A DNA stretch of 64,000 nt, from assembly GCA_032622095.1 (NCBI GenBank), contig CP136062.1:201961959-202025958 (forward strand), written 5' to 3'. This document shows positions 1 through 51,483 of this stretch, one piece after another. Within the stretch, counting starts at the first letter, position 1. Every line of letters begins with the position of its first letter. The notes under the pieces were generated by a model that saw nothing but the letters and a program-made list of their open reading frames with translations, had not been told where the DNA came from and made no database searches. This DNA is from Siphonodentalium dalli (taxonomy: Eukaryota > Mollusca > Scaphopoda > Gadilida > Siphonodentaliidae). The position numbers were made by a program, and so were the translations under genes.

Positions 1-1888
1 TGCCCCGACCACATAATTGATTGATAAACATACAGGGGGCCGAATTTCACCATGGTCTGCCGAAGGCAGACCCGGGGAGAGCTCGAGAGGGGTGTCCCCT
101 GTCGAAGGGGTGGGTCTGCATGGGGGTACCCCCCCCCCCACCCGGGGATTTTTTTGGACTTTAAGGCCAAATGGAGCGCATTTCCTTGGTTTAAAATAAA
201 CTTAATGGCCCTTATTTATGTCATTTATATGGCTACACAAAGAGGTGGATTACACTAATTGCACACATCTGCTACTGAATGTCAGAAATTTTCTATTTAA
301 ATACTTTCTCCAAGATAACCTAGAATTCCCACTCTATCACAAGTTCAGCATGGAGGATCGAAAGACCATGAACCCACCCACATCGGAACCATAAACCCAT
401 ATACTAGTAGTTAGCGATGGCATATATTGTTAATATTTTCAATGTTGGTCACTGCCCCATGCTGCTAATAAGGATCACATTCTGTCATTAGGAGGAAGTG
501 TTGTGCTATTTTGCATTATATCTCCAGAATATAGCTATTTTATTATCCTATCCAACCACACCAACAGCTGTCCCGCTTTACCCGTGAACTAAATATCACA
601 TAGTTGTAGTGGCAGAGTGATAAAGGCTGACAGTGATAATTTGGCTTGAACTTTCACAAACAGCATGACATATACTATTATTGCTCCGACCATAGTCGGG
701 GTGGCCGGGGTAGATCCGGCGCCCTTGCTCTGTGTTAAGTGGTATTCCGTATGCATGGGGGTGGGGTGGGGGCCTCCTATCAACTGGAGCTATAGCCATT
801 TGTTGGAATTACCATAAGCGTATTTTGCCACGCACTATAGGGATGCTCTTGTTGTGCCATGCAATTGGGTGTGATGGATTGTCTCAAATTTAATAGTCAT
901 ACTTTTGAATTTCAATTTTTCAGCCCCGCCTAACAATCCGGGTTTGGAATTTAATGTCTGAGACAGCAGCAGTTGGAAATTTCAAACCTATCGTGGCCAA
1001 GAAATTCCGTAACGCACATACATCACCTTGATTGTGGTCCGTATAATTACATTGTAACCTCAACTCTATCTCTTTTCACAGTTGCACATTATCACGATGT
1101 CATAACCGACTGACCGAGATCGATCGATTACAGGTAAAATTGGTACAGGGGCGTCAACCTTTTCCCGAAACAAACACATGTAGATATCGGTAGATACGCT
1201 AAACACTTGCCAAATTTAGCTTGAATGTTTGATTACGATTCTTGACATGTCTATACTGTGTATATATAGCGGCTGACATTATATAACCTTGGTTATCAGC
1301 TACCCAACAATACCCTTGGTGATAAGAGCCGCCGTGCATCCTTCGTGCGGGTTCACCTAAATGTAGCAAGTCCCTGAAAATGCAGCAAGTCCCTAGAAAT
1401 GCAGCAAGTCCCCCTAATTGGGGGTGGTTTAATGGAGTTATTGATGAGTGAAATCAGTCACGGTGTTTTATTATTCATTTTATTTATGATCTGGGGCGGT
1501 TGTTTGATTTGATTGGAAATATTTATCCCTTTATAATTCACACCTACCATTCACTTTGCCGCCTGGCCGCTCTCTAGCAGACAAGGCCGCCTCTATGTCC
1601 AAACGTTTTTTTTCTCCCAGAATGCTGGTCCGATTTCACTAAATGTGGTGTGTAGACGCGGGGTACCCTCGCGGAGTTTATAGTAAGTTTTATTAAGTTG
1701 TTACTTATCTCTTTTATTCTGCTCGGTATTTAATATAATTAAATTAATTAACGACACACCCTTCTAGTAAAGTTACCAGAACCGGACAGCAAATTAAAAC
1801 AACAAAGGCCTAAACCATTAAATTTTAATACATGTATCCAAATAATTTTCATTCAATAAAATCTCCCCTCACTGCTATATCTATATAA
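1..1888. other. no recognised gene; short low-complexity and tandem tracts
   Basis: Nothing here looks coding. A poly-C/GGG tract lies at 129-150. A GCAGCAAGTCCC-type unit repeats three times at about 1364-1412. A block at about 1600-1690 (TCCCAGAATGCTGGTCCGAT and flanks) recurs, diverged, at about 4345-4440, on either side of the Helitron-like array. Confidence 0.5.
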
Positions 1889-4317
1889 TCTCATATATAT
1901 TTTGAAGACCTCTGTTTGTTTGTCTGTCTGTCTGTCTGTCATTAATACAAATCTACGATTCTCGACCGATCGGGACGAAACTTGGTACGTGCGTGTAGTT
2001 TGACCAGGCGGTCGTCGTTGTCGTATTGGCGAGCCCGTGCGGCGCCCGCTTCGCGCATGCGCAGACGAGATCTCGGAAACGGGTGGAGCTATCGACTTGA
2101 AATTTGGTATGTGAATGTATCTTGCCCCGGATACGAATTTTATCGGGTCGCCGAGCCCGTGCGACGCCAGCTTCGCGCATGCGCAGACGAGATCTCGGAA
2201 ACGGGTGGAGCTATCGACTTGAAATTTGGTATGTGAATGTATCTTGCCCCGGATACGAATTTTATCGGGTCGCCGAGCCCGTTCGACGCCAGCTTCGCGC
2301 ATGCGCAGACCAGATCTCGGAAACGGGTAGAGCTATCGACTTGAAATTTCGGGCTGGGTAGAGCTATCGACTTGAAATTTGGTTTTTGAATAGCCCGGAC
2401 AACGTCGGGCTCATCGGCTAGTCTCATATATATTTTGAAGACCTCTGTTTGTTTGTCTGTCTGTCTGTCTGTCATTAATACAAATCTACGATTCTCGACC
2501 GATCGGGACGAAACTTGGTACGTGTGTGTAGTTTGACCAGGCGGTCGTCGTTGTCGTATTGGCGAGCCCGTGCGGCGCCCGCTTCGCGCATGCGCAGACG
2601 AGATCTCGGAAACGGGTGGAGCTATCGACTTGAAATTTGCTATGTGAATGTATCTTGCCCCGGATACGAATTTTATCGGGTCGCCGAGCCCGTGCGACGC
2701 CAGCTTCGCGCATGCGCAGACGAGATCTCGGAAACGGGTGGAGCTATCGACTTGAAATTTGGTATGTGAATGTATCTTGCCCCGGATACGAATTTTATCG
2801 GGTCGCCGAGCCCGTTCGACGCCAGCTTCGCGCATGCGCAGACCAGATCTCGGAAACGGGTAGAGCTATCGACTTGAAATTTCGGGCTGGGTAGAGCTAT
2901 CGACTTGAAATTTGGTTTTTGAATAGCCCGGACAACGTCGGGCTCATCGGCTAGTCTCATATATATTTTGAAGACCTCTGTCTGTATGTTTGTTTGTTTG
3001 TCTGTCTGTCTGTCATTTATACAAATCTACGATTCTCGACCGATCGGGACGAAACTTGGTACGCGTGTGTAGTTTGACCAGGCGGTGAACGTTGTCGTAT
3101 TGGCGAGCCCGTGCGGCGCCCGCTTCGCGCATGCGCAGACGAGATCTCGGAAACGGGTGGAGCTATCGACTTGAAATTTGCTATGTGAATGTATCTTGCC
3201 CCGGATACGAATTTTATCGGGTCGCCGAGCCCGTGCGACACCAGGTTCGCGCATGCGCAGACGAGATCTCGGAAACGGGTGGAGCTATCGACTTGAAATT
3301 TGCTATGTGAATGTATCTTGCCCCGGATACGAATTTTATCGGGTCGCCGAGCCCGTGCGACGCGAGCTTCGCGCATGCGCAGACCAGATCTCGGAAACGG
3401 GTAGAGCTATCGACTTGAAATTTGGTTTTTGAATAGCCCGGACAACGTCGGGCTGGGTAGAGCTATCGACTTGAAATTTGGTTTTTGAATAGCCGGACAC
3501 GCCAGCTTCGCGCATGCGCAGACGAGATATCGGAAACGGGTGGAGCTATCGACTTGAAATTTCGTATGTGAATGTATCTTGCACCGGATACGAATTTTAT
3601 CGGGTCGCCGAGCCCGTGCGACGCCAGCTTCGCGCATGCGCAGACGAGATCTCGGAAACGGTGGAGCTATCGACTTGAAATTTGGTTTTTGAATAGCTAT
3701 CGACTTGAAATTTGGTTTTTGAATAGCCCGGACAACGTCGGGCTCATCGGCTAGTCTCTAATATATTTTGAAGACCCCTGTTTGTCTGTCTGTATGTATG
3801 TTTGTTTGTTTGTCTGTCATTTATACACATCTACGATTCTCGACCGATCGGGACGAAACTTGGTACGTGTTTGTAGTTTGACCAGGCGGTGGACGTTGTC
3901 GTATTGGCGAGCCCGTGTGGCGCCCGCTTCGCGCATGCGCAGACGAGATCTCGGAAACGGGTGGAGCTATCGACTTGAAATTTGCTATGTGAATGTATCT
4001 TGCCCCGGATACGAATTTTATCGGGTCGCCGAGCCCGTGCGACGCCAGCTTCGCGCATGCGCAGACGAGATCTCGGAAACGGGTGGAGCTATCGACTTGA
4101 AATTTGGTATGTGAATGTATCTTGCCCCGGATACGAATTTTATCGGGTCGCCGAGCCCGTGCGACGCCAGCTTCGCGCATCCGCAGACCAGATCTCGGAA
4201 ACGGGTAGAGCTATCGACTTGAAATTTGGTTTTTGACCAGATCTCGGAAACGGGTGAAGCTATCGATTTGAAATTTGGTTTTTGAATAGCCCGGACAACG
4301 TCGGGCTCATCGGCTAG
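1889..4317 (+). mobile_element. head-to-tail tandem array of four non-autonomous Helitron-like elements
   Basis: Four units run 1889-2421, 2422-2954, 2955-3754 and 3755-4317 (533, 533, 800 and 563 bp). Each begins TCTC(A/T)ATATAT and ends CTAG. Each has a stem-loop (AGCCCGGACAACGTCGGGCT) six bases before the CTAG. The array is preceded by A and followed by T. These are canonical Helitron ends and target context. Each unit holds a GTCTGTC-type microsatellite and then 122-bp core repeats containing the palindromes GCGCATGCGC and CGAGATCTCG. Unit 3 has extra core copies. There is no Rep/helicase gene, so the units are non-autonomous. The open frames running through the array are repeat artefacts. 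Confidence 0.75.
2049..2414 (+). repeat. 122-bp core tandem repeats of the Helitron-like unit (first unit)
   Basis: The landmark CTTCGCGCATGCGCAG recurs at 2049, 2171 and 2293, exactly 122 bases apart. The same spacing is seen in the later units. Because 122 is not a multiple of three, the frame shifts between copies, which argues against coding function. Confidence 0.85.
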
Positions 4318-4489
4318 TGTACATATAAAAGAGTAGGATCTGTCTGTCCGGATTTTTCTCCTAGAATGGTGGTCCGATTTCACCCAAATATGATGTGGTG
4401 AGTCGGGTACACTGGTGGAGGTTATATAACGACGTTAGTTAAAAAAATGAAAAAAACAAAATGTAATTAAATAAAAATAAATAAAATAC

Positions 4490-15774: not shown

Positions 15775-17261
15775 ACTTACTTTGTAAGTTTGAGCTATTG
15801 CCGTGGGTTGGCGTCCGTCGTCCGTGTGTCTGTGTTTCCGTCAACAATTTCCTTTGGCGTGGGCTACAGGTCGTACCTTTGCGTACCTTTGGTCTGATCT
15901 TTATGAAATTTGTCATGAATGTTGACATTGACATGTAGATAGGAACGAGTCATTTTGGGGTCATTCGGCCAAAAAACATGGCCGCTGGCGGCCATCTTGG
16001 ATTTCAAAATTAAATCCATTGGCTCGGTCTACAGGTCGTACTGTTCGTCTGATCATCATGAGATTTGTCACGGATGTTAATATTGACATGTAGATGGGAA
16101 CGAGTCATTTTGGGGTCGTTCTGTCAAACAATATGGCCGCCAGCAGCCATTTTGGATTTTACTCTTCGCATGACTAAATCCTTTGGTGCGGGCTGCAGGT
16201 CGTAGCTTTAGTCGGATCTTCATGAAATTCGTCATGGATGTTAACAATGACATGTAGATGGGAACGAGTCATTTTGGGGTTGATCGGCCGAAAAACAAGG
16301 CCGCCAGCAGCCATCTTGGAGTTTACTCTTTGCATGACTCCTTTGGCACGGGCTACAGGTCGTAGCATTGGTCAGAATTTCATGAAATTTGTCATGGATG
16401 TTAACAATGACATGTAGACGGGAACGAGTCCTTTTGGGGTTATTCAGCCAAAAAACATGGCTGCTGGTGGCCATCTTGGATTTCAAAATTAAATCCATTG
16501 GTGCGGGCTACAGGTCGTACTATTCATCTGATAATCATGAAATTTGTCATTGATGGTAATATTGACATGTAGATGGGAACGAGTCATTTTGGGGTCGTTC
16601 GGCCAAAAAACATGGCCGCCAGCAGCCATCTTGGATTTTACTCTTTGCATGACTAAATCCTTTGGCGCGGGCTACAGGTCGTAGATTTGGTCGGATCTTC
16701 ATGAAATTTGTCATGGATGTTAAAAATGACATGTAGATAGGAACGAGTCATTTTGGGGTCGTTCGGCCAAAAAACATGGCCACCAGCAGCCATCTTGGAT
16801 TTTACTCTTTGCATCACTAAATCCTTTGGCACAGGCTACATGGCGTACCTTTGGTCAGATCATTATGAGATTTGTCATGGCTGTTGACCTTGACATGTAA
16901 ATGGGAACGAGTTATTTTGGGGCCATTTGGCCAAAAAACATGGCCGTTGGTGGCCATCTTGGATTTAAAAATGAAATCCATTGGCGCCGGCTACAGGTCG
17001 TACTATTCGTCTGATCATCATGAAATTTGTCATGAATGGTAATATTGACGTGTAGATGGGAACGAGTCATTTTGGGGTCATTCGGCCAAAAAACATGGCC
17101 GTCAGCAGCCATCTTGGATTTTACTCTTTGCATGACTAAATCCTTTGGCACAGCTAGGTTAGACATTTCAATTAGCACCTTCCCTATTCCTCCATTTACT
17201 ATCAACCATTAAATTATTCCCCTACCTAAGTTGAGCTACAGTGTCATTGACACTTTCATTT
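15775..17261 (+). mobile_element. pearl-like (Helentron-associated) non-autonomous element, copy 1
   Basis: It begins TTTTAGCTCAACTTAC and closes with the inverted form CTAAGTTGAGCTA, then a stem-loop AGTGTCATTGACACT and TTCATT. Between them are a CCGTCGTCCGTGTG microsatellite and about eight core units of 155-164 bp, marked by GACATGTAGATGGGAACGAG at 15930, 16085, 16249, 16409, 16564, 16728, 16892 and 17047. The layout matches bivalve pearl and DINE/HINE elements. The minus-strand open frames across it (KSKMAA.., RPKLRPVARAKG..) are repeat artefacts. Confidence 0.75.
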
Positions 17262-18499: not shown

Positions 18500-20161
18500 T
18501 TTTAGCTCAACTTACTTTGTAAGTTTGAGCTATTGCCATGGTTCGGCGTCCGTCGTCCGTGTATGCGTGTGTCCGTGTGTCCGTCAACAATTTCCTTTGG
18601 CGCGGGCTACAGGTCATACCTGTGATCTGATCTTTATGAGATTTGTCATGAATGTTGACATTGACATGTAGATGGGAACGAGTCATTTTGGTGTCATTCG
18701 GCCAAAAAACATGGCCGCTGGCAGCCATCTTGGATTTCAAAATTCAATCCATTGGCGCGGGCTACAGGTCATACTGTTCTTCTGATTATCATGAAATTTG
18801 TCATGGATGTTAGTATTGACATGTAGATGGGAACGAGTGATTTTGGGGTCGTTCGGCCGAAAAACATGGCCGCCAGCAGCCATCTTGGATTTTACTCTTT
18901 GCATGACTAAATCCTTTGGCGCGGGCTACAGGTCGTAGCTTTGGTCGGAACTTCATAAAATTTGTCATGGATATAAACAATGACATGTAGATGGGAACGA
19001 GTCCTTTTGGGGTCGTTCGGCCAAAAAACATGGCCGCTGGCAGCCATCTTGGATTTCAAAATTCAATCCATTGGCGCGGGCTACAGGTCGTACTGTTCGT
19101 CTGATTATCATGAAATTTGTCATGGATGTTAGTATTGACATGTAGATGGGAACGAGTGATTTTGGGGTCGGTCCAGGTCGGTCGGCCAAAAAACATGGCC
19201 GCCAGCAGCCATCTTGGATTTTACTCTTTGCATGACTAAATCCTTTGGCGCGGGCTACAGGTCGTAGCTCTGGTCCGATGTTTATGAAGTTTGTCATAAA
19301 TCTTGCCATTGACATGTAAATGGGAACGAGTCATTTTGGGGTCATTCGGCAAAAAAACATGGCTGCTGGCAGCCATCTTGGATTTCAAAATTCAATCCAT
19401 TGGCGCGGGCTACAGGTCGTACTGTTCTTCTGATTATCATGAAATTTGTCATGGATGTTAGTATTGACATGTAGATGGGAACGAGTGTTTTTGGGGTCGT
19501 TCGGCCAAAAAACATGGCCGCCAGCAGCCATCCTGGATTTTACTCTTTGCATGACTAAATCCTTTGGCACGGGCTACAGGTCGTAGCTTTGGTCGGAACT
19601 TCATAAAATTTGTTATGGATGTTAACAATGACATGTAGATGGGGAAACAAGTCATTTTGGGGTCATTTGGCTGAAAAACATGGCCGCTGGCGGCCATCTT
19701 GGATTTCAAAATTCAATCCAATGGCACGGGCTACAGTTCGTACTGTTCGTCTGATCATCATGAAATATGTCATATATGTTAGTATTGACATGTAGATGAG
19801 AACGAGTGATTTTGGGGTCGTTCGGCCAAAATACATGGTCGCCAGCAGCCATCTTGGATTTAACTCTTTGCATGACTAAATCCTTTGGCACGGGCTACAG
19901 GTCGTAGCTTTGGTCGGAACTTCATGAAATTTGTCATGGATGTTAACAATGACACGTAGATGGGAACGAGTCCTTTTGGGGTCAATTGGCCAAAAAACAT
20001 GGCCACCAGCAGCCATCTTTAATTTTACTCTTTGCATGACTAAATCCTTTGGCACATGTTAGACATTTCAATTACCACCTTTCCTATTCCTCCATTTACT
20101 GTCAACCATTAAATTATTCCCCTACCTAAGTTGAGCTACAGTGTCATTGACACTTTCATTT
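18500..20161 (+). mobile_element. pearl-like (Helentron-associated) non-autonomous element, copy 2
   Basis: Same ends and core as the copy at 15775: TTTTAGCTCAACTTAC start, CCGTCGTCCGTG microsatellite, about nine core units, CTAAGTTGAGCTA, stem-loop AGTGTCATTGACACT and TTCATT. It ends 176 bases before the acceptor of the galactosyltransferase anchor exon. Confidence 0.75.
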
Positions 20162-22592: not shown

Positions 22593-23513
22593 TATGCCCC
22601 CGACTTGAAGTCGGCGGGTATATAGTCGACGTCTCCGTCCGCCCGTACGTCCGTACAAACATTTTGCATTATTGTTCAGCAACCGCTGGGCAGATTTATC
22701 TTATATTTGGTATGGTGATAGAGCAGCATGGGTGAACAGCTACATGCATAGCGCGGGTTTCGTCCACCCATTTTCACCAGAGTTATGGGCCTTTTTTTAC
22801 TTAGAAAATTCAATTTTGTCCGTCCGTACAAACATTTTGCATTATTGTTCAGCAACCGCTGGGCAGATTTAGCTGATATTTGGTATGGTGATAGAGCAGC
22901 ATGGGGGAACAGCTACATGCATAGCGCGGGTTTCGTACACCCATTTTCACCAGAGTTATGGCCCTTTTTTGACTTAGAAAATTCAATATTGTCCGTCTGT
23001 ACAAACATTTTGCATTATTGTTCAGCAACCGCTGGGCAGATTTAGCTGATATTTGGTATGGTGATAGAGCAGCATGGGGGAACAGCTACATGCATAGCGC
23101 GGATTTCGTCCACCCATTTTCACCAGAGTTATGGCCCTTTTTTTACTTAGAAAATTCAATTTTTCTCTTGTTTTTTTGGGTTTCCAGATGATAGCGTGAG
23201 CTTTGGTGGTACGATTGCAAATCCCGTATTTTTGTGGATCAGTTATATGAAAATACATGTCAAGTGCGAATTTGGGTATGATCTGATGATTTTTGCCAGA
23301 GTTATGGCCCTTTTTTCAACTTAGAAAATTTGAATTTTCGCTTGTTTTTGGGTTTCCGGATCGCTTGTTTTGTGGTTTTTAGTCAACAGTTCTGTACGAA
23401 CTTCTTTTGGAATGGTCATATAGACCTCCTCGGATATCCGCAGTTTCGTCCATGCTTAATCCAAATTGCTACGGTCGGGGGCAAATGCCACGTGACAGCG
23501 TACCTCTTGTTTA
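22593..23513 (+). mobile_element. tandem-core repeat element with TATGCCCCCGAC end and three 173-bp units
   Basis: It starts TATGCCCCCGACTTGAAGTC, itself a hairpin, followed by a GTCCGTCC microsatellite. Then come three units with GTCCGTACAAACATTTTGCA at 22649, 22822 and 22995, and a diverged fourth. Each unit holds an ATTTGGTATGGTGATAG block and an AGAGTTATGGCCCTTTTTT block. It closes near CGGTCGGGGGCAAATGCC, inverted relative to the start. Overall plan is like the pearl elements, but the sequence differs. Confidence 0.65.
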
Positions 23514-24477
23514 ATCCTGTTTTGCTCTTAATTTAGTTTTAGTGTATAATACCTTACTTGTATTTAAATTCACGCAGTACTATTTTTCGCGCATGCATTG
23601 GTGTGCAAATTTAAAACTGAGCGAAAAATGGTATGACTCCTGAGTTTATAGCGAACCACAGGGAAAAGCAGATGTATATGTTGATGAGTTACTTACATTA
23701 CAGAAGGCTGGACTGAATATACTCAATATAGACAACTAGACTTGATTTTATAGGGCTATATATTACATGCGGTCGACCAACATAAAAATCATTACTCATA
23801 ATTATGTAAAGCAGCTAATTACGGTAACATCGTTGGTGTTGAAATACTTATAAGAAATATACATGTGCCATGCTGAAGGCGCACGAAAGTACGCCCCCTG
23901 TTATCAACACTGCACGGAGTGACACCATGCAAACATCCTAAATTATTTATGCCAACAAAACCCTCAGCCAAGTGTTGATTTTTTCTGAAGTTGATTTTTT
24001 CTGAAGCTGCTTGTATGTGGTTGTGGTCTTACTTCTTTCGAATTTATTCCAATGATGACGATAACTATTTCAATTGAATATCACTGTAACTCCGGGTACC
24101 CAGGTGGATGATATAATGGCGTTAGTTTAAAAAAAAATTTTATTGAAAAAATAATTTTTGTTAAATTGAGCAAGGAGTTCAATCTAAACAAAAAAATTAT
24201 AAATAATAATCTTTTTAAATCAAAACTGTTTTAAATATAAATTTTTGTGTGAAGCACACAAAGGGGTAGTCCAAAATTTACTATACATTGAATGTATATC
24301 ATTATCCCCTAGATGTTCGACTAACAAAGGGGCTGCGGGCTCCTACGCCATTGATTAAATGCTCCTAAAAGCAGCCTGTTTAATTAAGAAGCCTGTTTCA
24401 GCTCATTCATTATACCTTTATGTCTAAAATAGTACAATAAAATAAAATAGTACAATGGCATTCATGTCATCATAGAC

Positions 24478-26133
24478 TAGGGCCCGACGAAGCTTCGAGA
24501 TTCGATTCGATTTCGAATCTTGCTACCAGATTCGATTCGATTCGAAAGCGGTCGTGTGATTCGGGATATTTCGAATTGTTGTATAAAAGTCCTTTATCGC
24601 CCGCATTTTCCCAAAATAGTTAACAATAATCCGCGACCGCTGTGTCCAACGTGTAGGGTAACTGGGTAAGTTGTCAAATAGATCGTTCTTTCTCCCCCAC
24701 TAATCTAGCGTGCCTATATGAAGTCATGTGAGATAGCTAAGTGGAATTTCCTACCTCGCATGAGCACGTGGTGTCTGTCTCACATGAGACACGTGGCTTG
24801 TCACATTTGCATACTCGATTGACGAAAGCACACCCACATCGAAGGTGTCATTTTTCAAATAAAATGTTAAAATGTAATCGAACTGAAATATATGTGACGA
24901 ACAATAAATGAATGTACATGTAATAAGTTTAAGCTTGTTAATTGCATGTCTAACTGGGTATTCCATATTCTGGAAATATATACATCTGATTTGACCCAAT
25001 TCTACTCGTTACCTATAACCAAGCCACACGATTGCTGTCGATATACGCAATGTATATAGTTCGGCGTTTCTGCAAAATAACATTAATTGTATTGTATTGC
25101 AAATGTATAACATAAAAGTAACTCGATAATTGAAATTTATAGGTTGTCATAGCAACATAAATTTCTCATTAAATATTTCTTCGCTCGAATTTAACAAGCG
25201 GACTTGAATCTTTGCCTTGAATCCGAATATCTAAATGTTCTGACGGACTCAATTATTTATTATCTCTACATGCTGTATCAGTTAGTTTGTTTTCAAATAG
25301 ATACCTTTGTTACATACCAAATTTGTACTTTTGACCAAGTTTTTGCAAGTTATGAGCGATTTGGGGGCAGAAACATCATCCTGGGTGCATGAGTGACTGG
25401 TGTGCATGGGATGGTAAAATCTCACCCTCGGGACAATATTTTTGACCCAGACACTCGGCAAACCTCGTGTCTGGCTCAAATATCTTCCCCCCTCGGGTAA
25501 CATTCCCCATCCTATAGATACACCACCACCCATCAAGGATAATAATAATAATCTCATTCCAAATGAGTGGATAGGACAGTGGGCAACAGACACTCAGTAA
25601 CAGTTTAATTAATTATAAACGTTCATGTTATTATTCTGAATACAAATACTTTGTTTCATTTAATAATTGTTGTTGTTTTTATTCTTAAATGAAATTCAGA
25701 TTCAGGAAACATAGAATTCCCGTCAGAATAATGATATAAGATATAGACTATACTATAGACACAGGATTTACAAAGCTATCCAAGATGGTGGATTGCTTGC
25801 GATATTCCTACAATTAACACTTATTTCTTCAATCTGCATGTCTACAAATGGTTTCTTTTAGGAGTTTTTGGCGATAAACACACAAAATAGACATGTATTT
25901 TATAAAATTTTAATATTCACATTTAATTATAATATTTGCTTTCCGTCAATACCGACGCTTTTGAAGTATACTTAAATACGGATATGGTATCCGGAATCTG
26001 GGAATATATACCGCAAATCTGCCGCGAGTGTTGGCAATAGATTCGATTCGAGATTTGATTCGATTTCGAATCATAACCATCATTCGATTCGAGATTCGAT
26101 TCGATGTTGAATTTGCCGATTCGTCGGGCCCTA
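24478..26133. mobile_element. hAT-like non-autonomous element, copy 1
   Basis: Inverted ends TAGGGCCCGACGAA and TTCGTCGGGCCCTA are perfect. Subterminal ATTCGATTCGA repeats lie inside both ends. Flanks TCATAGAC (24470-24477) and TCATTGAC (26134-26141) form an 8-bp target duplication with one mismatch. No transposase is evident; the open frames at 24751-24999 and 25282-25593 (minus strand) have no recognised domain. A CCTCGGG-AATATTTTTGACC inverted motif lies at 25431-25500. Confidence 0.72.
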
Positions 26134-26454
26134 TCATTGACATTTACATTTGGATTAAGATTGGGGAAGTCCTCATATTAAATCACACTGACAAAAGAAT
26201 TTTGTACCTCTTTATCTGACAAAGCCACTCATTAAATAGAAAAACTGTAATTCATCATATGCTGTCAAAATTTAGGGAATACTATCATACAATTGGTTGT
26301 CACTTAACCTTTTGGCGGGTGGAACGACATATATGTTGTTTACAGTAGTTTTCAGGTAATATTATGTTACTTTATCATAACTTAAAAAACTCATCTCCAA
26401 AAGGGTAACTTTTCATGGATATAATACGGATATATGTTATTTTTATGTCTACCC

Positions 26455-26870
26455 ATACCATAGTATGGTAAACATAGTGTCAACGTCCGGATTGACCACT
26501 CGTCGTTTGTCCGTCCGTCTGTCTGTCTGTAGACACTTTACGCATAATGCGATAACTGAAACATTTAAAATCCGATCGGAACCAAATTTGGTATGTGAGT
26601 TTCTCAGCCCAAAATACAGATCAAGTTCGAATATGGGTTTGATCCGAGTTTTTTTTTACAGAGTTATGGCCCTTTTTCGACTTAGAATTCACGCATTCTG
26701 CCATAACTCAAACATTTTTGATCTGATTGGAACCAAATTTGGTATGTGAGTTTCTCAACCCAAAATACAGATCGAGTTCGAATATGGGTTTGATCCGATT
26801 TATTTTAAAGGAGTTATTTACCCTTTTTCGAAAATAAAATAAAAAAAATAATATTGTGTTTAGATTAAAC
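26455..26870 (+). repeat. short tandem-core element with GTCCGTCCGTCTGTC head, copy 1
   Basis: A TACCATAGTATGGTA palindrome and a GTCCGTCTGTC microsatellite precede two core units of about 145 bp. Each unit has the block CGGAACCAAATTTGGTATGT (or TTGGAACC..), a GAATATGGGTTTGATCCGA block, then GAGTTAT plus CCCTTTTTCGA. A single diverged unit recurs at 46318-46470. Confidence 0.65.
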
Positions 26871-26940
26871 TCCTTGCTCAATTTAACCAAAAACAAATTA
26901 TTAAAATTTTTGTTTTAACTTTTATAATAAAAACATTATT

Positions 26941-29900
26941 TTCCGGATCGCTTGTTTTGTGGTTTTTAGTCAACAGTTCTGTACGAACTTCTTTTGGAAT
27001 GGTCATATAGACCTCCTCGGATATCCGCAGTTTCGTCCATGCTTAATCCAAATTGCTACGGTCGGGGGCAAATGCCACGTGACAGCGTACCTCTTGTTTA
27101 ATCCTGTTTTGCTCTTAATTTAGTTTTAGTGTATAATACCTTACTTGTATTTAAATTCACGCAGTACTATTTTTCGCGCATGCATTGGTGTGCAAATTTA
27201 AAACTGAGCGAAAAATGGTATGACTCCTGAGTTTATAGCGAACCACAGGGAAAAGCAGATGTATATGTTGATGAGTTACTTACATTACAGAAGGCTGGAC
27301 TGAATATACTCAATATAGACAACTAGACTTGATTTTATAGGGCTATATATTACATGCGGTCGACCAACATAAAAATCATTACTCATAATTATGTAAAGCA
27401 GCTAATTACGGTAACATCGTTGGTGTTGAAATACTTATAAGAAATATACATGTGCCATGCTGAAGGCGCACGAAAGTACGCCCCCTGTTATCAACACTGC
27501 ACGGAGTGACACCATGCAAACATCCTAAATTATTTATGCCAACAAAACCCTCAGCCAAGTGTTGATTTTTTCTGAAGTTGATTTTTTCTGAAGCTGCTTG
27601 TATGTGGTTGTGGTCTTACTTCTTTCGAATTTATTCCAATGATGACGATAACTATTTCAATTGAATATCACTGTAACTCCGGGTACCCAGGTGGATGATA
27701 TAATGGCGTTAGTTTAAAAAAAAATTTTATTGAAAAAATAATTTTTGTTAAATTGAGCAAGGAGTTCAATCTAAACAAAAAAATTATAAATAATAATCTT
27801 TTTAAATCAAAACTGTTTTAAATATAAATTTTTGTGTGAAGCACACAAAGGGGTAGTCCAAAATTTACTATACATTGAATGTATATCATTATCCCCTAGA
27901 TGTTCGACTAACAAAGGGGCTGCGGGCTCCTACGCCATTGATTAAATGCTCCTAAAAGCAGCCTGTTTAATTAAGAAGCCTGTTTCAGCTCATTCATTAT
28001 ACCTTTATGTCTAAAATAGTACAATAAAATAAAATAGTACAATGGCATTCATGTCATCATAGACTAGGGCCCGACGAAGCTTCGAGATTCGATTCGATTT
28101 CGAATCTTGCTACCAGATTCGATTCGATTCGAAAGCGGTCGTGTGATTCGGGATATTTCGAATTGTTGTATAAAAGTCCTTTATCGCCCGCATTTTCCCA
28201 AAATAGTTAACAATAATCCGCGACCGCTGTGTCCAACGTGTAGGGTAACTGGGTAAGTTGTCAAATAGATCGTTCTTTCTCCCCCACTAATCTAGCGTGC
28301 CTATATGAAGTCATGTGAGATAGCTAAGTGGAATTTCCTACCTCGCATGAGCACGTGGTGTCTGTCTCACATGAGACACGTGGCTTGTCACATTTGCATA
28401 CTCGATTGACGAAAGCACACCCACATCGAAGGTGTCATTTTTCAAATAAAATGTTAAAATGTAATCGAACTGAAATATATGTGACGAACAATAAATGAAT
28501 GTACATGTAATAAGTTTAAGCTTGTTAATTGCATGTCTAACTGGGTATTCCATATTCTGGAAATATATACATCTGATTTGACCCAATTCTACTCGTTACC
28601 TATAACCAAGCCACACGATTGCTGTCGATATACGCAATGTATATAGTTCGGCGTTTCTGCAAAATAACATTAATTGTATTGTATTGCAAATGTATAACAT
28701 AAAAGTAACTCGATAATTGAAATTTATAGGTTGTCATAGCAACATAAATTTCTCATTAAATATTTCTTCGCTCGAATTTAACAAGCGGACTTGAATCTTT
28801 GCCTTGAATCCGAATATCTAAATGTTCTGACGGACTCAATTATTTATTATCTCTACATGCTGTATCAGTTAGTTTGTTTTCAAATAGATACCTTTGTTAC
28901 ATACCAAATTTGTACTTTTGACCAAGTTTTTGCAAGTTATGAGCGATTTGGGGGCAGAAACATCATCCTGGGTGCATGAGTGACTGGTGTGCATGGGATG
29001 GTAAAATCTCACCCTCGGGACAATATTTTTGACCCAGACACTCGGCAAACCTCGTGTCTGGCTCAAATATCTTCCCCCCTCGGGTAACATTCCCCATCCT
29101 ATAGATACACCACCACCCATCAAGGATAATAATAATAATCTCATTCCAAATGAGTGGATAGGACAGTGGGCAACAGACACTCAGTAACAGTTTAATTAAT
29201 TATAAACGTTCATGTTATTATTCTGAATACAAATACTTTGTTTCATTTAATAATTGTTGTTGTTTTTATTCTTAAATGAAATTCAGATTCAGGAAACATA
29301 GAATTCCCGTCAGAATAATGATATAAGATATAGACTATACTATAGACACAGGATTTACAAAGCTATCCAAGATGGTGGATTGCTTGCGATATTCCTACAA
29401 TTAACACTTATTTCTTCAATCTGCATGTCTACAAATGGTTTCTTTTAGGAGTTTTTGGCGATAAACACACAAAATAGACATGTATTTTATAAAATTTTAA
29501 TATTCACATTTAATTATAATATTTGCTTTCCGTCAATACCGACGCTTTTGAAGTATACTTAAATACGGATATGGTATCCGGAATCTGGGAATATATACCG
29601 CAAATCTGCCGCGAGTGTTGGCAATAGATTCGATTCGAGATTTGATTCGATTTCGAATCATAACCATCATTCGATTCGAGATTCGATTCGATGTTGAATT
29701 TGCCGATTCGTCGGGCCCTATCATTGACATTTACATTTGGATTAAGATTGGGGAAGTCCTCATATTAAATCACACTGACAAAAGAATTTTGTACCTCTTT
29801 ATCTGACAAAGCCACTCATTAAATAGAAAAACTGTAATTCATCATATGCTGTCAAAATTTAGGGAATACTATCATACAATTGGTTGTCACTTAACCTTTT

Positions 29901-30527
29901 GGCGGGTGGAACGACATATATGTTGTTTACAGTAGTTTTCAGGTAATATTATGTTACTTTATCATAACTTAAAAAACTCATCTCCAAAAGGGTAACTTTT
30001 CATGGATATAATACGGATATATGTTATTTTTATGTCTACCCATACCATAGTATGGTAAACATAGTGTCAACGTCCGGATTGACCACTCGTCGTTTGTCCG
30101 TCCGTCTGTCTGTCTGTAGACACTTTACGCATAATGCGATAACTGAAACATTTAAAATCCGATCGGAACCAAATTTGGTATGTGAGTTTCTCAGCCCAAA
30201 ATACAGATCAAGTTCGAATATGGGTTTGATCCGAGTTTTTTTTTACAGAGTTATGGCCCTTTTTCGACTTAGAATTCACGCATTCTGCCATAACTCAAAC
30301 ATTTTTGATCTGATTGGAACCAAATTTGGTATGTGAGTTTCTCAACCCAAAATACAGATCGAGTTCGAATATGGGTTTGATCCGATTTATTTTAAAGGAG
30401 TTATTTACCCTTTTTCGAAAATAAAATAAAAAAAATAATATTGTGTTTAGATTAAACTCCTTGCTCAATTTAACCAAAAACAAATTATTAAAATTTTTGT
30501 TTTAACTTTTATAATAAAAACATTATT
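26941..30527 (+). repeat. 3,587-bp tandem duplication, copy 2
   Basis: Second, seemingly identical copy of 23354-26940. The hAT-like element recurs at 28065-29720 and the short tandem-core element at about 30042-30457. The copy ends AAACATTATT, after which the sequence continues into TTATTAAAA. Confidence 0.93.
28065..29720. mobile_element. hAT-like non-autonomous element, copy 2
   Basis: Exact positional counterpart of 24478-26133 within the second copy of the tandem duplication, so it arose by that duplication and not by transposition. Confidence 0.72.
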
Positions 30528-31690
30528 TTATTAAAAAAAAAAATGTCATTGATACTTTCATTTGTTTTCATTGAGATATTGATGATTATGATACAAGTTG
30601 ATAGAAAGGTTCCCAATGTGTCCCTTTAAATATTTAGTAATGAAACCATAAATTAATAGTGTTACTGTTTAGAGACCCAGAGCATCTGCCGAGGTAACTA
30701 CAGGTTTAGCACTGAGTGTCCTATCTCGCTCTGGCTCTGGCTAGATGAAGTCAAAGATAAACAACACTGCTGGCATCTGTCAAATTTGATTAATGGCAGC
30801 ATGAAACTCTGGTTTCTCCTATTCTTGAAATTCCATTACAGGGTGTGATGTCCCTCACCTATATATATATATATATATAGTTTCTTCCATATCCCATTTA
30901 TCTGCTTAGAAAATAATTAATCTATTCCATGGTTCCCATAGAGTAGACATATGCTATAATGTGCAAAGACTCTTCCTCATATCTCTTATCTGTGATTATC
31001 TTTGCACACTAGTCACTTCTATTGATTTTGGTATTGACTGATTAATTGACTTTTGAAAAATATATTAGCCCTTCAGGCACATGCTTCAATGTGCAATTAA
31101 AATAGTGGCTGATAGCCAATTTGATTTATCTATGAAATAGGTAACAGGCAGATAAATCTACATGATTATTGTAAGTGATGCCTTGTTTTGAAAATCAAGA
31201 TGATATATGATAGATGTTGTTAATATTTCCAGGAAGCTTATTTTTCCATTTGTTCATATTGTCATGGTTGATTGAGTTTTAGGGGCCACAGAGCACTTAA
31301 AAGTTTAACATTTAAGGCTATGGATTTTAGTGTCAGCTACATGGAAAACATTGTAATGTGTGAAACCATTTGATTGAGGGCTACTTACTTTCTTTTATAT
31401 GAACTATGGTAATCTATTTCGATTTAGGGGTCATAGGGGCTAGCATCCTCATCATATTATGTCTGTATAACATTATATAGATAACACTTTTGTATTGTAT
31501 TGTATAAACTACATATATTTTTGAAAACCATACACCCGTGTTATGAAACACTTAATCTTGCATGTACCTAACAATATAAGCATTCATTATTACACATGTC
31601 AGATCTGATCATATTTGTCTGACATGTTTGATAAACAAATAACAACTGGTTATTATTTACATTGATTCCTGCCTTTAATAATGTGTTGTC
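30528..31690. other. intron sequence without recognised gene
   Basis: It holds a pearl-type tail fragment (GTCATTGATACTTTCATTT at 30545-30563), a (TA)n run at about 30860-30880 and a small inverted pair ACATGTCAGAT / GTCTGACATGT near 31595-31628. Confidence 0.45.
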
Positions 31691-31865: not shown

Positions 31866-32126
31866 TAATGTCTGTTGTTATCGGAAAATACTGAATTCTG
31901 CGGCAGGTGCTCCAATTAATGCCAAATTTGTAATAAATTGAAATATACACAAACATTCCTTAGTCTTAAACCTACGGAAGCCTATTAGGGCCATTTAATT
32001 TTTGTTATAATTTTCATTAAAATATTTAATTTTTTATTTAATTTTTGTTATATATTCATTAAAATATTTCATTTTTTATTTAATTTTTTATATATATTCA
32101 TTAAAATATTTCCTTTTTACTTTCCA

Positions 32127-32442
32127 CCTGGGAGATAACTTTTCTCCCGGGAATTAACTTTTCTCCCAGGGAGATAACTTTTCTCCCGGGAATTAACTTT
32201 TCTCCCAGGGAGAAAACTTTTCTCCCGGGAATTAACTTTTCTCCCTGGGAGATAACTTATCTCCCAGGGAGAAAACTTTTCTCCCGCGAATTAACTTATC
32301 TCCCTGGGAGAAAACTTTTCTCCCGCGAATTAACTTATCTCCCAGGGAGAAAACTTTTCTCCCGCGAATTAACTTATCTCCCTGGGAGAAAACTTTTCTC
32401 CCGCGAATTAACTTATCTCCCAAGGAGAAAACTTTTCTCCAC
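32127..32442 (+). repeat. TTTTCTCCC(G/A)GG minisatellite, forward array
   Basis: Units of about 39 bases alternate CTCCCGGGAATTAACTTTT or CTCCCGCGAATTAACTTAT with CTCCC(A/T)GGGAGA(T/A)AACTT. The array reads through on the minus strand as repeated peptide (GRKVFS(L/Q)GDKLIR), which is an artefact of 39-base periodicity. It ends at CCACCGGTGGAAAATCACGTG. Confidence 0.85.
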
Positions 32443-33349: not shown

Positions 33350-33821
33350 GGATGCCGTGGATACTTTATAATTTGGTGTATCTCCCACATCGATACGTGC
33401 AAGATCGCCAAAGATATATATGCATATGTGCACACTTTCAAAATCAGACAAACCCCTGAACAGATTCCCATCAAATATAGCACACAGACAGGACCATCAG
33501 TGGTGAATCATTGTGACAAGTGGAATTCTTATGTACAGAGGATATTGATGAATTTAGATTGCAAGTGAGTCTATGCTCAATATAGGTCTGATAGATATAA
33601 ACCTTGTATTAAGGTATATACTTATGGTAGTGTTGTCGCACCATGCAGGGGACCTGTGACACCATGCGCTAAACATTGGCGCCTTATATATTGACTGTCA
33701 AAATGTTTTTTCGCGCCAGGACATCAGACAATGACACGTGACAGGTGTATTTTAACCGTAGGAGGATATGTTTGAATGTTATCGGTTACGTGAAACCTAT
33801 CACATCACGTGATTTTCCACC

Positions 33822-34041
33822 ACGGGAGAAAAGTTAATTCCCGGGAGATAAGTTATCTCCCTGGGAGAAAAGTTAATTCCCGAGAGAAAAGTTTTCTCCC
33901 TGGGAGATAAGTTATCTCCCTGGGAGAAAAGTTAATTCCCGGGAGAAAAGTTTTCTCCCTGGGAGATAAGTTAATTCCCGGGACTGGGAGATAAGTTATC
34001 TCCCTGGGAGAAAAGTTAATTCCCGGGAGAAAAGTTTTCTA
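33822..34041 (-). repeat. TTTTCTCCC(G/A)GG minisatellite, inverted array
   Basis: Same unit as 32127-32442 on the opposite strand (GGGAGAAAAGTTAATTCCC and GGGAGATAAGTTATCTCCC). It is entered through AATCACGTG-like sequence (ATCACGTGATTTTCCACCA), mirroring the exit of the forward array. The two arrays are therefore the subterminal inverted parts of one element. Confidence 0.85.
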
Positions 34042-35608: not shown

Positions 35609-36167
35609 CCTCAAAATCATGTCTCAACGACCAGACTAAATTGTTAACAATATTACTCAATAATATATTCACCCATGGATCTGACATCTTAAATGACATA
35701 CTCACCCGCAAAAGGGTTAATTAGCTATTGAGGTTAATTCTTGATAACCTTAATTGGTACCCTTCCAGGAAGCACAGATGTGCCCGACAGCAGCTGCACT
35801 TGTTTTCGGCATGATTGTTCATTTCATTCAATTATTGAATGATGGAAATCAAGTTTCTCTTCAACTCTATCTGTTATTGACAGGTGTTTTTTCCCAACAC
35901 ATACACATAATTGTTGTTTGCAAGTTAAAATTTCAATTTTATGGAGATTCAATTTATATTGGTGAAATACATGCAGATGTTTTGACTAATACTGGGATTA
36001 AATTATAAGAAATAACTTGTTTCGATTAAAGTGACACGTTATAGAATTTGTATTCAAAGTTTTCTGTTATAACTGCATAACCTCAGTCGAAACAAGACAG
36101 TGTTATTCTTTCTATAATATTTTATTATTTGGTTTTTAAATTACAACATTGTTTTTTCTTATTCCAG

Positions 36168-36835
36168 TGTCAAGCAGGATATCTCAATTGAAGCTTAAAC
36201 TTCTATGTTTTATTACGACCCAGCCCGGTGTTCTAACCACGAAGGCCCATGCTGTGAATATTACATGGGGCAGGCGTTGTGATAAAATCATATATATAAT
36301 ATCAAAATCGGGTGCTGATCATATAAATGGACATGATATTCTCAAAATCGACACTCCAAATTCGAGGGCTCATCTCACTGCCAAATCTCGAGAGACATTT
36401 ATTCACATTTACGACAAATATTTAAATGATTACGACTGGTTCTATAAGGCTGATGATGATACGTATGCAGTAGTTGAAAATCTGAAATATCTTCTGTCTA
36501 TTCATTCCCCCATGGACCGTGTATTCCTCGGCCACTATATGAAGTATAAGACCTTTAAAGGTGTAGGATACTATAGTGGTGGTGCGGGCTACACTCTCTC
36601 AAGGGAATCGCTACGGAGTCTTGTAGAGGATGGATTTTACAAGGACATGTGCCCACAAGACGGAGGTAATGAGGACTTAATAATAAGCCACTGCGCTGTG
36701 AAGACTGGTTCGAAGGCATTCTCGAGTCGAGATCGGTTTCATAGAGAAACATTCCATCCAGAAAGCATGTGGGACATGATAGCCGGTCCTCCTGGCCGAT
36801 TGGCTGACTTTTACTCCAGATATTATCCCACTGTT
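36168..36835 (+). CDS. C1GALT1: C1GALT1-like galactosyltransferase, catalytic-domain exon
   Basis: This 668-nt exon carries most of the GT31 catalytic domain. Landmarks in order match C1GALT1: the first strand (LKLKLLCFITTQP), a KAHAVNITWGRRCDK block, DWFYKADDDTYAVVENLKYLLS with the DxD-type metal and UDP-Gal site, YYSGGAGYTLSRESL, the disulfide pair in CPQDGGNEDLIISHC, and a histidine motif ETFHPESMWDMI. The acceptor is TTCTTATTCCAG and the donor is GTT|GTAAGT. It is entered in phase 1 and left in phase 0. An apparently longer frame starting upstream at 36149 is intron read-through. No frameshift or stop is seen and all catalytic landmarks are present, so the enzyme looks functional. Molluscs can carry several C1GALT1 paralogs, so one-to-one orthology is not shown. 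Confidence 0.93.
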
Positions 36836-36938
36836 GTAAGTAATAGTGCATTGAATAATGTATATGTTTTTGGTGAAAATTACATTTGCAAGTTTTATAT
36901 ATTTTCCATCATACATGTACTTGATCTGTACCTATAAT

Positions 36939-41795: not shown

Positions 41796-43802
41796 TTTTA
41801 GCTCAACTTTGTAAAGTTTGAGCTAATGCCATGGCTTTGTCGTCCGTCGCCCGTGTGTGTGTGTGCATGTGTGCGTGATCCGTCAACAATTTCCTTTAGC
41901 ACGGGCTACAGGTCGTACCTTCGGTCGGATCATTATGAAATTTGTCATGGCTGTTGACATGACATGTAAATGGGAACATGTCATTTTGCGGTCATTCGGG
42001 GAAAAAACATGGCCGCCAGTGGCCATCTTGGATTTCAAAATTCAATCCATTAGCACGGGCTACAGGTCGTACTGTTCGTCTGATCATCATGAAATTTATC
42101 ATGGATGTTAATATTGACATGTAGATAACAAGTCATTTTGGGGTCGTTCGGCCAAAAAACATGGCCGCCAGCAGCCATCTTGGATTTTACTCTTTGCATG
42201 ACTAAATCCTTTGCACGGGCTACAGGTCGTAGCTTTGGTCGGATCTTCATGAAATTTGTCATGGATGTTAACAATTACATGTAGATGGGAACGAGTCATT
42301 TTGTGGTCATTCGACCAAAAAACATGGCCACCAGCAGCCATCTTGGATTTTACTCTTTGCATGACTAAATCCTTAGTCACGGGCTACAGATCGTACCTTT
42401 GGTCAGATCATTATGAGATTTTACATGGCTGTGGACATTGACATGTAGATGGGAACGAGTCATTTTGGGGTCATTCGGCAAAAAAAATTGGCCACCAGCA
42501 GCCATCTTGGATTTCAATATTCAATTCATTAGCACAGGCTACAGGTCGTACTGGTCATCTGATCATTATGAAATATCTCATGGATGTTAATATTGACATG
42601 TAGATGGGAACGAATCATTTTGGGGTCGTTCGGCTAAAAAACATGGCCGCCAACAGCCATCTTGGATTTTACTCTTTGCATGACTAAATCCTTTGTCATG
42701 GGCTACAGGTCGTAGCTTTGGTCAGATCATTATGAGTTTTGTCACGGCTGTTGACATTGACATGTAGATGGGAACGAGTCATTTTGGGGTCATCTTGGAT
42801 TTCAATCCATAAGCCTTGTCACTGGTTCGCGATTTTCAAGATGGCCGATGGTTCCATATGGTCCGATTCCTAGCATTTTACCCAATCCACCGGTAAAAGG
42901 TCAAAGTTAAGAAGTAGCATCCATTTGTAAACATTCGACAACTGAGTGCGAGCAATTTTTATCAGCATTTTATGGCTTAATTTCAGTGTAACTACGGGTT
43001 TAAGAATTGTTTTATGTCCATGTCATCTACAGAATTAGGATCTGGTGACGATGCGGACATTCAGACGTTTAAGCGATGGACGCCCTCTTTTGTCAACGAA
43101 CTTCCCATAATTTACTGATAAATAGCGAGTATTTGCGATAAAAAATAATTACGTGATACACTCAATCCATCTACTGCGTGAAACCTACATATTGTATGTA
43201 TCCAGGGTGATTGTTTAATTAGTTTTATGAAGTTGTCGCACCTGCGATTCGGTAACGAACTGTTGCCATTTTATTTTGGGAATTCCCAGACTGGAGCCAT
43301 ATGCTAAAAATAGATGCTACTTATCTTTGTCCTCCGGAGACCAAATGGCGGATTCACCGCGAGTTAGTGATCTCACTTATTAGCACAGGCTACAGGTCGT
43401 AATGTTCATCTGATCATCATGAAATTTGTCATGGATGTTAATATTGACATGTAGATGGGAACGAGTAATTTTGGGGTCGTACGCCAAAAAACATGTCCGC
43501 CAGCAGCCATCTTGGATTGTACTCTTTGCATGACTAAATCCTTTGACACAGGCTACAGGTTGTATCTTTTGTCGGATCATCATAAAATTTGTGATGGATG
43601 TTAACAATTAATGACATGTAAATGGGAACGAGTCTTTTTGGGGTCATTCTGCAAAAAAAATTGCTGACAGTGGCCATCTTGGATTTTACTCTTTGCATAA
43701 CTAGGCCTTTCAACTTTCCACATTCCTAATCACTCCATTGACTGTAACACATGAAATTATTCCCTTTCCAAGTTGAGCTACAGTGTCATTGACACTTTCA
43801 TT
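41796..43802 (+). mobile_element. pearl-like (Helentron-associated) element, copy 3, interrupted
   Basis: Start TTTTTAGCTCAACTTTG, GTGTGTGTG microsatellite, core units with GACATGTAGATGGGAACGAG, then CAAGTTGAGCTA, stem-loop AGTGTCATTGACACT and TTCATT. An unrelated segment interrupts it at about 42822-43378. Its 3' end lies 82 bases before the last galactosyltransferase exon. Confidence 0.75.
42822..43378. mobile_element. unclassified insertion inside the pearl-like element
   Basis: About 557 bases unrelated to the pearl core sit between two core fragments. Its ends carry a weak inverted relationship (CACTGGTTCGCG near the left, CACTAACTCGCGG as complement near the right), and the junctions suggest a TAA/TTA-type target. 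A 34-codon frame from ATG at 43014 (SGDDADIQTFKRWTPSFVNE) looks protein-like but has no recognised family; it may be a captured exon piece or chance. Confidence 0.5.
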
Positions 43803-47383: not shown

Positions 47384-48904
47384 ATATCAACATTTTGTTT
47401 AACGCAATTTGGTATCGAGAATGTGTCATGCGGTTTGTTGAATATTTGCTAGGCTGCCAAATATTCCATGTGGTGAAAAATAGCAGATTTCAAAAATCAA
47501 TATCTGATAACTCTGAGCTTTGATGGGTGGGTTCCTCGACTCGAATAAAAAAAAAAAAATTTATCCCCGAGGCGAACTGAAGCCAAAGAAAAGAAATATT
47601 ACGTATATTATATATTACGGATGTATTTTTATCATCAAGTTATTTTAAGATTTCATCCCTACATACATGTATAAATTCTGTTGTATTAATACCTGCTGTC
47701 TGTTTTAATTTAATTGTTAAATGTCAGAAAGGTCATCTATGTAGACACTGCTCTTCGCTTGGTGATGTCACAACTGTTATCAGTCGAGTTTGGGTGGTTA
47801 TCATCCGAGTTTGGTAATATGATGGTAGTTTATAATAAATTTGAAGTGATAACAGTCAAGGTCGAGAATATGTCACTTAAGGCAAAAATATGATATTTAA
47901 TTAATAACATGTTATATAGCATGTTATATAGTAATGTATTGGATAAAAACAAAAACATCCCAAAAATCATAAAGAAATATAAATCGCCAAATAATAACAC
48001 CAGGCGTCATTACACTATCAAGGCATCATTGGCTATAAAGTTTTATATTTGGACATTATTTTGACAGAAATTAGTATTGAATCATGTGTTTTGTGCCATG
48101 TTCTGCAAATATGCTTATTTGTGTGGTACTTTAATTGTCTACAATCCCTCATCGGTTAAGCCATTGTGATTTATGGTGTATTGAAGTCCGAATCTGCCAA
48201 AATTCCTTTCCTGTTTTTTCCGAAAACACAGGTCCTGGAGTGTCATGCATGTGGGAAAATCTAATGGACAATCTTTTCTTTGTGAGGTTATTTCCAATTA
48301 TATTTCATGTTCCTTCATGTTTTGAATTTTTCTGAACCCATAATTTTAACATAAATGGTTAAAATTCACCAAAGTCAGCTCAAAACCGTGCTCATGTGAT
48401 ATATTTTCATGTAGCGACCTGTTGATGTTTTGTGCAACACAGGCAAACATTGACAATACCTAATACATGTACATGCTTTGTGAAAGGAACAAATATTATA
48501 ATATTCCATTATCAGGAGATTTGCCTATGAGGCAAAATTAATCAACTCTCGTGTTGCAAACAATAAATTTCATCAATTATATATATATATTTATTTGCAT
48601 GTACGAAAGCATGAATTTTCATTTAATTTACATAAGAGCTGCATATAAGATGAAATTTGTTTGAACATGAATTTTTCATTGTACTCTATTGGTTATTTGT
48701 GCTACATGCCAAATGAGATTTTGTTCTTCGCATTTGATGCCTCTCATTTTTGTTTGTTTATATTTTAGTTTTTTCTTTAATATAGCTAACTATTAAAGAT
48801 TTACAAGCTTTATTATTGTTTGTTATTGAAAACTTATGTCAGTTTGTTTTGCTGCTGTGACAACCTTTAAGTCTTCCATGGCTGGAGCTTTCTGAATTTT
48901 GCAA

Positions 48905-49123
48905 AAAACCTGTGCAATGCATTCAATTATATATGCAAGTCTCCCATAGGGAGCCTCATATATATACGAGAATACATTAGCCTAACAATATTTACCTTGA
49001 CCTTGTTAGCCAGTGCATTCTCTTATATATGCAAAGCTCCCTATGTGAGTCTCACATATATAAGAGAATGCACTGGCACAGGATCATGAATGCTGCAATA
49101 GCGCATCTCCCGTCATGAAAGGG
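48905..49123. mobile_element. double-hairpin MITE, TTAACCCTTTCATGACGG end type
   Basis: Two hairpins of the TGCATTCTCTTATATATGCA family (about 48914-48983 and 49010-49076) are followed by ATCATGAATGCTGCAATAGC and the end CCGTCATGAAAGGG with TTAA at 49124-49127. The matching left end is not obvious, so the left boundary is approximate. Its counterpart lies at about 55980-56198. Confidence 0.6.
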
Positions 49124-50094
49124 TTAAACTATATTCACACACTGGGGTCATGGCAAATTTTCAGGCAATTCATCATAGAAGAATGTGGTGTAACTGTGAG
49201 CCACAACATCAATTATATACTGCTTATAAAATTTGTGAGTCTCATTGTTTTCTGCGCAGGCAAGATACTCACTGTAATTCCACTTGTAATTGTTCATCTT
49301 ACATTTTCCATACATCAGTCATAAAATATCTGGCAAGACTCAACTGCGCTTTAAATGGCTCAAAACACAAATCACAATAAAAAAGGGAATTATCAACAAG
49401 ATATGGCATACCATTAGTGGCCAATTATTAATTTTCAACTGTTTCGACTCCTATCCCTTTCCGATCACTCAAAAATTTGATTTTACAGAACGCGATGTAA
49501 AATTTCACAAACAAATTTGGAATTCTAGACATATTTCAACAAGGAATGAGCAGAACTGTGTTATTTTAGTGATGCATTCCATTATCCATGAGTATTCCAA
49601 GTCATTGGAACAAAAATTGTTACTATGGCTCAAAATGGCCGCAAAAATGTGAAAAATTGTAGATATTGCCCCAGTGTGCTCTGCAATCACTTACAAGTTG
49701 TGGTTGATGAATAAAATGGGCTATTCTGCCTTATATCCATTGAAATCTAACATGTCTGATTCACTTTGGTTAACTGTTAGTATTGTAACCACTGACATTA
49801 CCAGAAACATTGGATTTTACTCTCACAAACTTGACATAAACATAGGCAAAAATTCACTTTAAAGGTTTGGACCATTTTTTGCTTGAATTTTGCCGAAAAC
49901 CTCTTTTCGGATTTTGGCTATATTTTTGAAAGGAAATGGGTAGAACTTTGAAAGGGAACTGAGATGAACCATAATATGTGGCTATTCTGGCCCATCAGGC
50001 TCAAAATTGATCATCTTGGTAGAAGGGAGGTCAAGATGGCAGTCAGGGAGTTACTGTGTGGTCACAGGTGAGGTGAATAGGTATTAAGTATACA

Positions 50095-51480: not shown

Positions 51481-51483
51481 CTG

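What the first reader, a model, noticed from the sequence alone, without database searches (positions are those of the whole stretch)
1889..4317. Four Helitron-like elements joined head to tail with no spacer
Each unit starts TC, ends CTAG with a stem-loop just before it, and the next unit starts at the very next base. The outer flanks are A and T, the Helitron target. Two units are exactly 533 bp, and the others differ by core-repeat number. A seamless array is what rolling-circle replication past a missed 3' end would give, so this locus may record that mechanism.
Basis: partly seen in the sequence, partly recalled or inferred. Interest (0 to 1): 0.75.

Follow-up and report, generated by a model that had tools for sequence, protein, structure and literature searches.

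The report
Four tandem Helitron-like elements, likely stepwise
Four complete copies of a small Helitron-like jumping element sit end to end with no spacer; the copies come in three clearly different versions, so they look added one after another rather than made in one rolling-circle accident, and arrays of this kind have been reported before.

Summary
Four units lie at 1889-2421 (533 bp), 2422-2954 (533), 2955-3754 (800) and 3755-4317 (563). Each begins TC, ends hairpin-CATCGG-CTAG and abuts the next at CTAG|TC; outer flanks are A and T. My scan found no other hairpin-CTAGT end in the window. The units have canonical Helitron ends, a GTCT-type microsatellite and a 122-bp core repeat. The proposed mechanism is only weakly supported: units 1 and 2 differ at 2 of 533 sites, but units 3 and 4 are structurally different, and the scored sites do not fit one identical four-unit product. 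Stepwise growth fits better: host A plus the T of an element's 5' TC is itself an AT target, so repeated canonical insertion at the 5' edge gives this geometry. Both ideas are in print (PMC2267711, PMC5148889; passages). A two-unit rolling-circle origin, or unequal exchange, for units 1-2 remains open. The decisive genome-wide test could not be run: 15 of 15 genome-search runs did not complete. New member of a known kind; modest interest.

The parts
1888..1888 (+). host A flanking the array's 5' end
   Evidence: junction table
1889..2421 (+). unit 1, 533 bp, TC...CTAG
2422..2954 (+). unit 2, 533 bp, 2 mismatches to unit 1
2955..3754 (+). unit 3, 800 bp, with internal hairpin copy and extra core and tail pieces
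3755..4317 (+). unit 4, 563 bp
1913..1940 (+). GTTT/GTCT microsatellite of unit 1 (longer and different in units 3 and 4)
2030..2349 (+). core repeats of unit 1: 122 + 122 + 76 bp
2563..2882 (+). core repeats of unit 2: 122 + 122 + 76 bp
3104..3426 (+). first core block of unit 3: 122 + 122 + 79 bp
3500..3686 (+). second core block of unit 3: two partial copies, 109 + 78 bp
3908..4230 (+). core repeats of unit 4: 122 + 122 + 79 bp
2392..2411 (+). terminal hairpin of unit 1 (same in units 2, 3, 4 at 2925, 3725, 4288)
3435..3454 (+). internal copy of the terminal hairpin in unit 3, not followed by CATCGGCTAG
3449..3462 (+). hairpin-to-core join CGGGCTGGGTAGAG in unit 3, shared with units 1 (2350) and 2 (2883), not found in unit 4
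4318..4318 (+). host T flanking the array's 3' end
   Evidence: junction table

Best explanation
A short Helitron-like element family without a transposase gene of its own has built a four-unit array step by step. Shown: four complete units with Helitron-type ends, seamless CTAG|TC junctions, outer A and T, three structural versions. Inferred: the 3'-most unit (4) inserted first into a host AT; the host A and the T of its 5' TC then formed a new AT target, into which a unit-3-type element and later unit-1/2-type elements inserted canonically, each leaving the A at the far left. Units 1 and 2 are either two insertions of one young subfamily or a later duplication of one unit. The transposase would be supplied in trans by an autonomous Rep/helicase element that was not seen here.
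For: Canonical ends and A/T flanks. Three structural versions in one array. Not a star: 20 scored variable sites divide as U1 2, U2 0, U3 6, U4 8, U1U2|U3U4 4 (tests). The join from the terminal hairpin back into the core is in units 1, 2 and 3 and not in unit 4, and units 1-2 lack a further 25 bp of it; read as derived changes this gives the nesting 4,(3,(1,2)) in array order, as 5'-ward growth predicts. The geometry is published, with PCR data favouring consecutive insertion of two adjacent maize Helitrons (PMC2267711, passages). Helraiser strongly prefers AT targets (46 of 1751 insertions elsewhere), with AT-rich surroundings most marked beside the element's 3' end (PMC4778049, passages); an existing unit's first 14 bases TCTCATATATATTT would lie on that side.
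Against: No dispersed copy of any unit version is known, because the genome could not be searched (15 of 15 calls unanswered), so independent sources are not shown. The tree matching the array order in this direction is 1 of 15 rooted trees of four units (my count), so only suggestive. Rooting assumes the hairpin-core join is derived; unit 4 could have lost it. Unit 1 has 2 private changes and unit 2 none, the wrong way round for a strictly younger unit 1, though too few to weigh. In Du et al. the order of insertion stayed unclear: the lines with one element held the left one only, which canonical 5' insertion explains only with a later clean excision.
Confidence: 0.55

Rival explanations
1. 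Rolling-circle concatemer: the Rep/helicase missed the 3' end (or copied a circle with joined CTAG|TC ends more than once) and a multimer was inserted into one AT site. For all four units this needs later homogenisation and rearrangement; it is simpler for units 1-2 alone.
For: Seamless junctions, outer A/T; units 1-2 nearly identical, 2 of 533; Helraiser makes active circles with exact CTAG|TC junctions (PMC4778049, passages); rolling-circle tandems proposed for bat and plants (as told in PMC2267711, PMC5876387, PMC12628747).
Against: Non-star divergence and three structural versions. The same geometry is expected from serial insertion.
Confidence: 0.2
2. Growth by unequal exchange or replication slippage at the locus: an older two- or three-unit array gained a unit in register, giving units 1 and 2.
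For: Units 1 and 2 nearly identical; core repeats and partial tails show local rearrangement.
Against: Unit 2 has unit-1 states at the U1U2 sites before, between and after its two differences from unit 1, so it is no simple unit 1/unit 3 hybrid; the crossover would have to fall in stretches where the units do not differ. Does not explain how the first tandem arose.
Confidence: 0.2
3. Assembly artefact: one or more units were added or misplaced by the assembler.
For: The same window holds an exactly identical 3590-bp tandem duplication, which may itself be an artefact.
Against: Units 1 and 2 differ at 2 sites and units 3 and 4 at many. No reads were available to check.
Confidence: 0.05

Closest known systems
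Head-to-tail Helitrons of maize (Du et al. 2008, PMC2267711; passages) and of the bat Myotis (Pritham and Feschotte 2007, seen only as cited there; PMC1794268 not held)
   Same: Seamless CTAG|TC junctions between elements; the two rival origins are stated by Du et al.
   Different: The maize case is two unlike gene-carrying elements; here four related units without a recognised gene
Three tandem Helitrons in Metarhizium acridum (Chellapan et al. 2016, PMC5148889; passages)
   Same: Multi-copy tandem, with repeated insertion at the 5' end or rolling circle given as alternatives
   Different: That survey's elements resemble Helitron2; here TC...CTAG ends
Central-repeat Helentron elements of oyster, Cg_HINE (PMC7492417; passages)
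   Same: Left flank with a microsatellite (GTCY type in several), core tandem repeats, 3' palindrome
   Different: No subterminal inverted repeat found here; CTAG end
Truncated Helitron arrays of plants (Xiong et al. 2016, seen only as described in PMC12628747; passages)
   Same: Tandem Helitron units, rolling-circle explanation
   Different: Many of those arrays have several 5' ends and one 3' end; here each unit has both

Membership tests
Canonical Helitron (Helitron1), non-autonomous | 5' TC and 3' CTRR | tested here: met
   4 of 4 units
Canonical Helitron (Helitron1), non-autonomous | Short hairpin 10-12 nt from the 3' end (definition from PMC5148889) | tested here: met
   20-nt palindrome ending 10 nt before the end, 4 of 4 units
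Canonical Helitron (Helitron1), non-autonomous | Insertion between A and T without duplication | tested here: inconclusive
   Outer flanks of the one array are A and T; no empty site or second locus could be examined
Canonical Helitron (Helitron1), non-autonomous | Dispersed copies and a Rep/helicase partner with the same ends | not tested
   The genome search unanswered 15 of 15. In the window, 10 of the 129 frames of 75 aa or more were scanned in Pfam; none was a Rep or helicase
Helentron / HINE | Subterminal inverted repeats of about 11-15 bp | tested here: not met
   Longest exact complementary match between the first 60 and last 90 bases is 5 nt in each unit; 174-179 of 200 shuffles reach it
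Helentron / HINE | Insertion preference for TT / T-rich sites | tested here: inconclusive
   One site only, flanks A and T
Satellite DNA | Long arrays only, no single insertions | not tested

The most novel reading that the evidence does not exclude
The locus is a self-regenerating landing site: because the 5' TC restores an AT target, the family repeatedly lands on its own left edge, so the array is a time-ordered record of successive active subfamilies (oldest at the 3' end), a route from Helitron to satellite DNA that needs no replication error.
Probability: 0.3. Interest if true: 0.5.

Novelty: new member of a known kind. Interest (0 to 1): 0.3.

Why it matters
Head-to-tail Helitron junctions are cited as support for rolling-circle transposition (PMC5876387, passages). 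A case with four complete units in three distinguishable versions lets read-through and serial insertion be separated by the tree and by alleles. Here the sequence leans to stepwise growth, so such junctions alone are weak evidence for rolling-circle multimers.

Tried and rejected
Single four-unit concatemer: rejected as the simple explanation. How the sites were chosen: of 34 variable columns I dropped 14 by hand after seeing them, 5 in the microsatellite and 9 in the region of unequal core joins (499, 501-504, 509, 510, 545, 547), and kept column 520 of that region. The dropped columns are private to unit 3 or 4, or of three states; none is private to unit 1 or 2 or supports another split. 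Columns 5-6 and 137-139 may each be one event. The simulation used equal rates on 480 columns and ignores mutation hotspots and gene conversion.

Helentron/HINE filing: rejected, no subterminal repeat. Unit 2 as a unit 1/unit 3 hybrid: rejected from the site order. The 3590-bp tandem repeat as another Helitron tandem: its ends are not TC...CTAG. Right flank as the 5' end of an older Helitron relic: seen by eye only, not claimed.

Led nowhere: pattern scans of viral contigs and genome contigs, blastn of unit 1 against plasmids and phages, Rfam, tRNAs: no match in any. Silkworm Helitron paper PMC3789558: no use of 'tandem' or 'head-to-tail'. Host: animal-like, perhaps a mollusc, by recalled look of the repeats plus one Fringe-like frame; not tested.

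Full report
Observation. The four units and their junctions are as described: 1889-2421, 2422-2954, 2955-3754 and 3755-4317, each TC...AGCCCGGACAACGTCGGGCT-CATCGG-CTAG, three internal CTAG|TC junctions, outer flanks A (1888) and T (4318). A stem-plus-CTA[GA]T scan of both strands of the window gives five hits, the four ends and one shifted reading of the third. The terminal palindrome folds as DNA at -6.4 kcal/mol, with 4 of 200 shuffles at least as good.

Anatomy. Each unit is a head of 141, 141, 149 or 153 bp with a GTTT/GTCT microsatellite, then 122-bp core repeats (two full and one partial of 76-79 bp), then a 41-bp tail with the hairpin. Unit 3 has a second, partial block of core and extra tail pieces. 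In units 1, 2 and 3 the hairpin's 3' arm runs directly back into the core (CGGGCTGGGTAGAG at 2350, 2883, 3449); in unit 3 the whole hairpin is still there (3435-3454), while units 1 and 2 lack 25 bp of it. Unit 4 lacks this join and has another one from tail to core. CpG observed/expected is 1.56-1.65 in the units and 0.85 in the window, so there is little sign of CpG decay. The longest open frame in the array (241 aa, stop to stop) has no Pfam match; the shorter array frames were not scanned.

History of the units. Pairwise mismatches are 2 (1-2), 13 (1-3), 11 (2-3), 20 (1-4), 18 (2-4) and 22 (3-4), gaps apart. Of 34 variable columns among 533 with four letters I set aside 14 in the microsatellite and the poorly aligned join region; the other 20 are private to unit 1 (2), unit 2 (0), unit 3 (6) or unit 4 (8), or split U1U2|U3U4 (4). 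Equal private decay is unlikely (exact multinomial p = 0.008), and 0 of 20000 star simulations gave four sites for one split. So the four units did not simply arise together as one identical multimer and decay apart. If the hairpin-core join is derived, the tree is 4,(3,(1,2)), in array order; against a strict order, unit 1 has more private changes than unit 2.

Mechanism. Two mechanisms give this geometry. In rolling-circle read-through a multimer is inserted once. In serial insertion, the host A followed by the T of an existing TC is an AT target; a new element there yields A|TC...CTAG|TC...CTAG|T, again and again. Du et al. state both for maize and argue for consecutive insertion, with the order left open (PMC2267711, passages); Chellapan et al. 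state both for three tandem copies in a fungus (PMC5148889, passages). Helraiser's AT preference and its active CTAG|TC circles (PMC4778049, passages) make each feasible. The three structural versions and the non-star pattern favour stepwise growth, with units 1-2 undecided between two insertions of one subfamily, a two-unit rolling-circle product, and unequal exchange.

Limits. Patterns from the unit gave no match in viral contigs or genome contigs, and unit 1 none by blastn in plasmids and phages; for a eukaryote element that is what one would expect.

Place among known things. The ends are those of canonical Helitrons, not of Helentrons (no subterminal inverted repeat), while the microsatellite and core repeats recall oyster HINE elements (PMC7492417, passages). 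Tandem Helitrons are in print for bat, maize, other plants and fungi. My literature searches were in one open-licence library; a matching four-unit case in papers outside it cannot be excluded. A new member of a known kind; interest 0.3.

Noticed in passing
23353-26942 and 26940-30529: A 3590-bp stretch repeated in tandem with 100% identity; ends not Helitron-like. Recent duplication or assembly artefact.
   Followed up: partly
47384-51483 and 54458-58598: A 4.1-kb direct duplication, 96% identical.
   Followed up: no
15882-17149, 18593-20053, 41896-42793, 43384-43703: Four arrays of one repeat family of about 160 bp, roughly 75-90% alike between arrays.
   Followed up: no
36140-36934 (+): Frame matching Pfam Fringe (E 3.7e-12, above its cut-off) and weakly Galactosyl_T (below its cut-off); the only one of 10 frames scanned with a match.
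   Followed up: no
32121-32440 and 33813-34040: Two arrays of GGGAGAAAAGTT-type repeats that match each other on opposite strands.
   Followed up: no
4353-4383 and 1609-1639: A 31-bp stretch just right of the array matches one left of it at 93.5%; the array may sit among relics of another repeat.
   Followed up: partly
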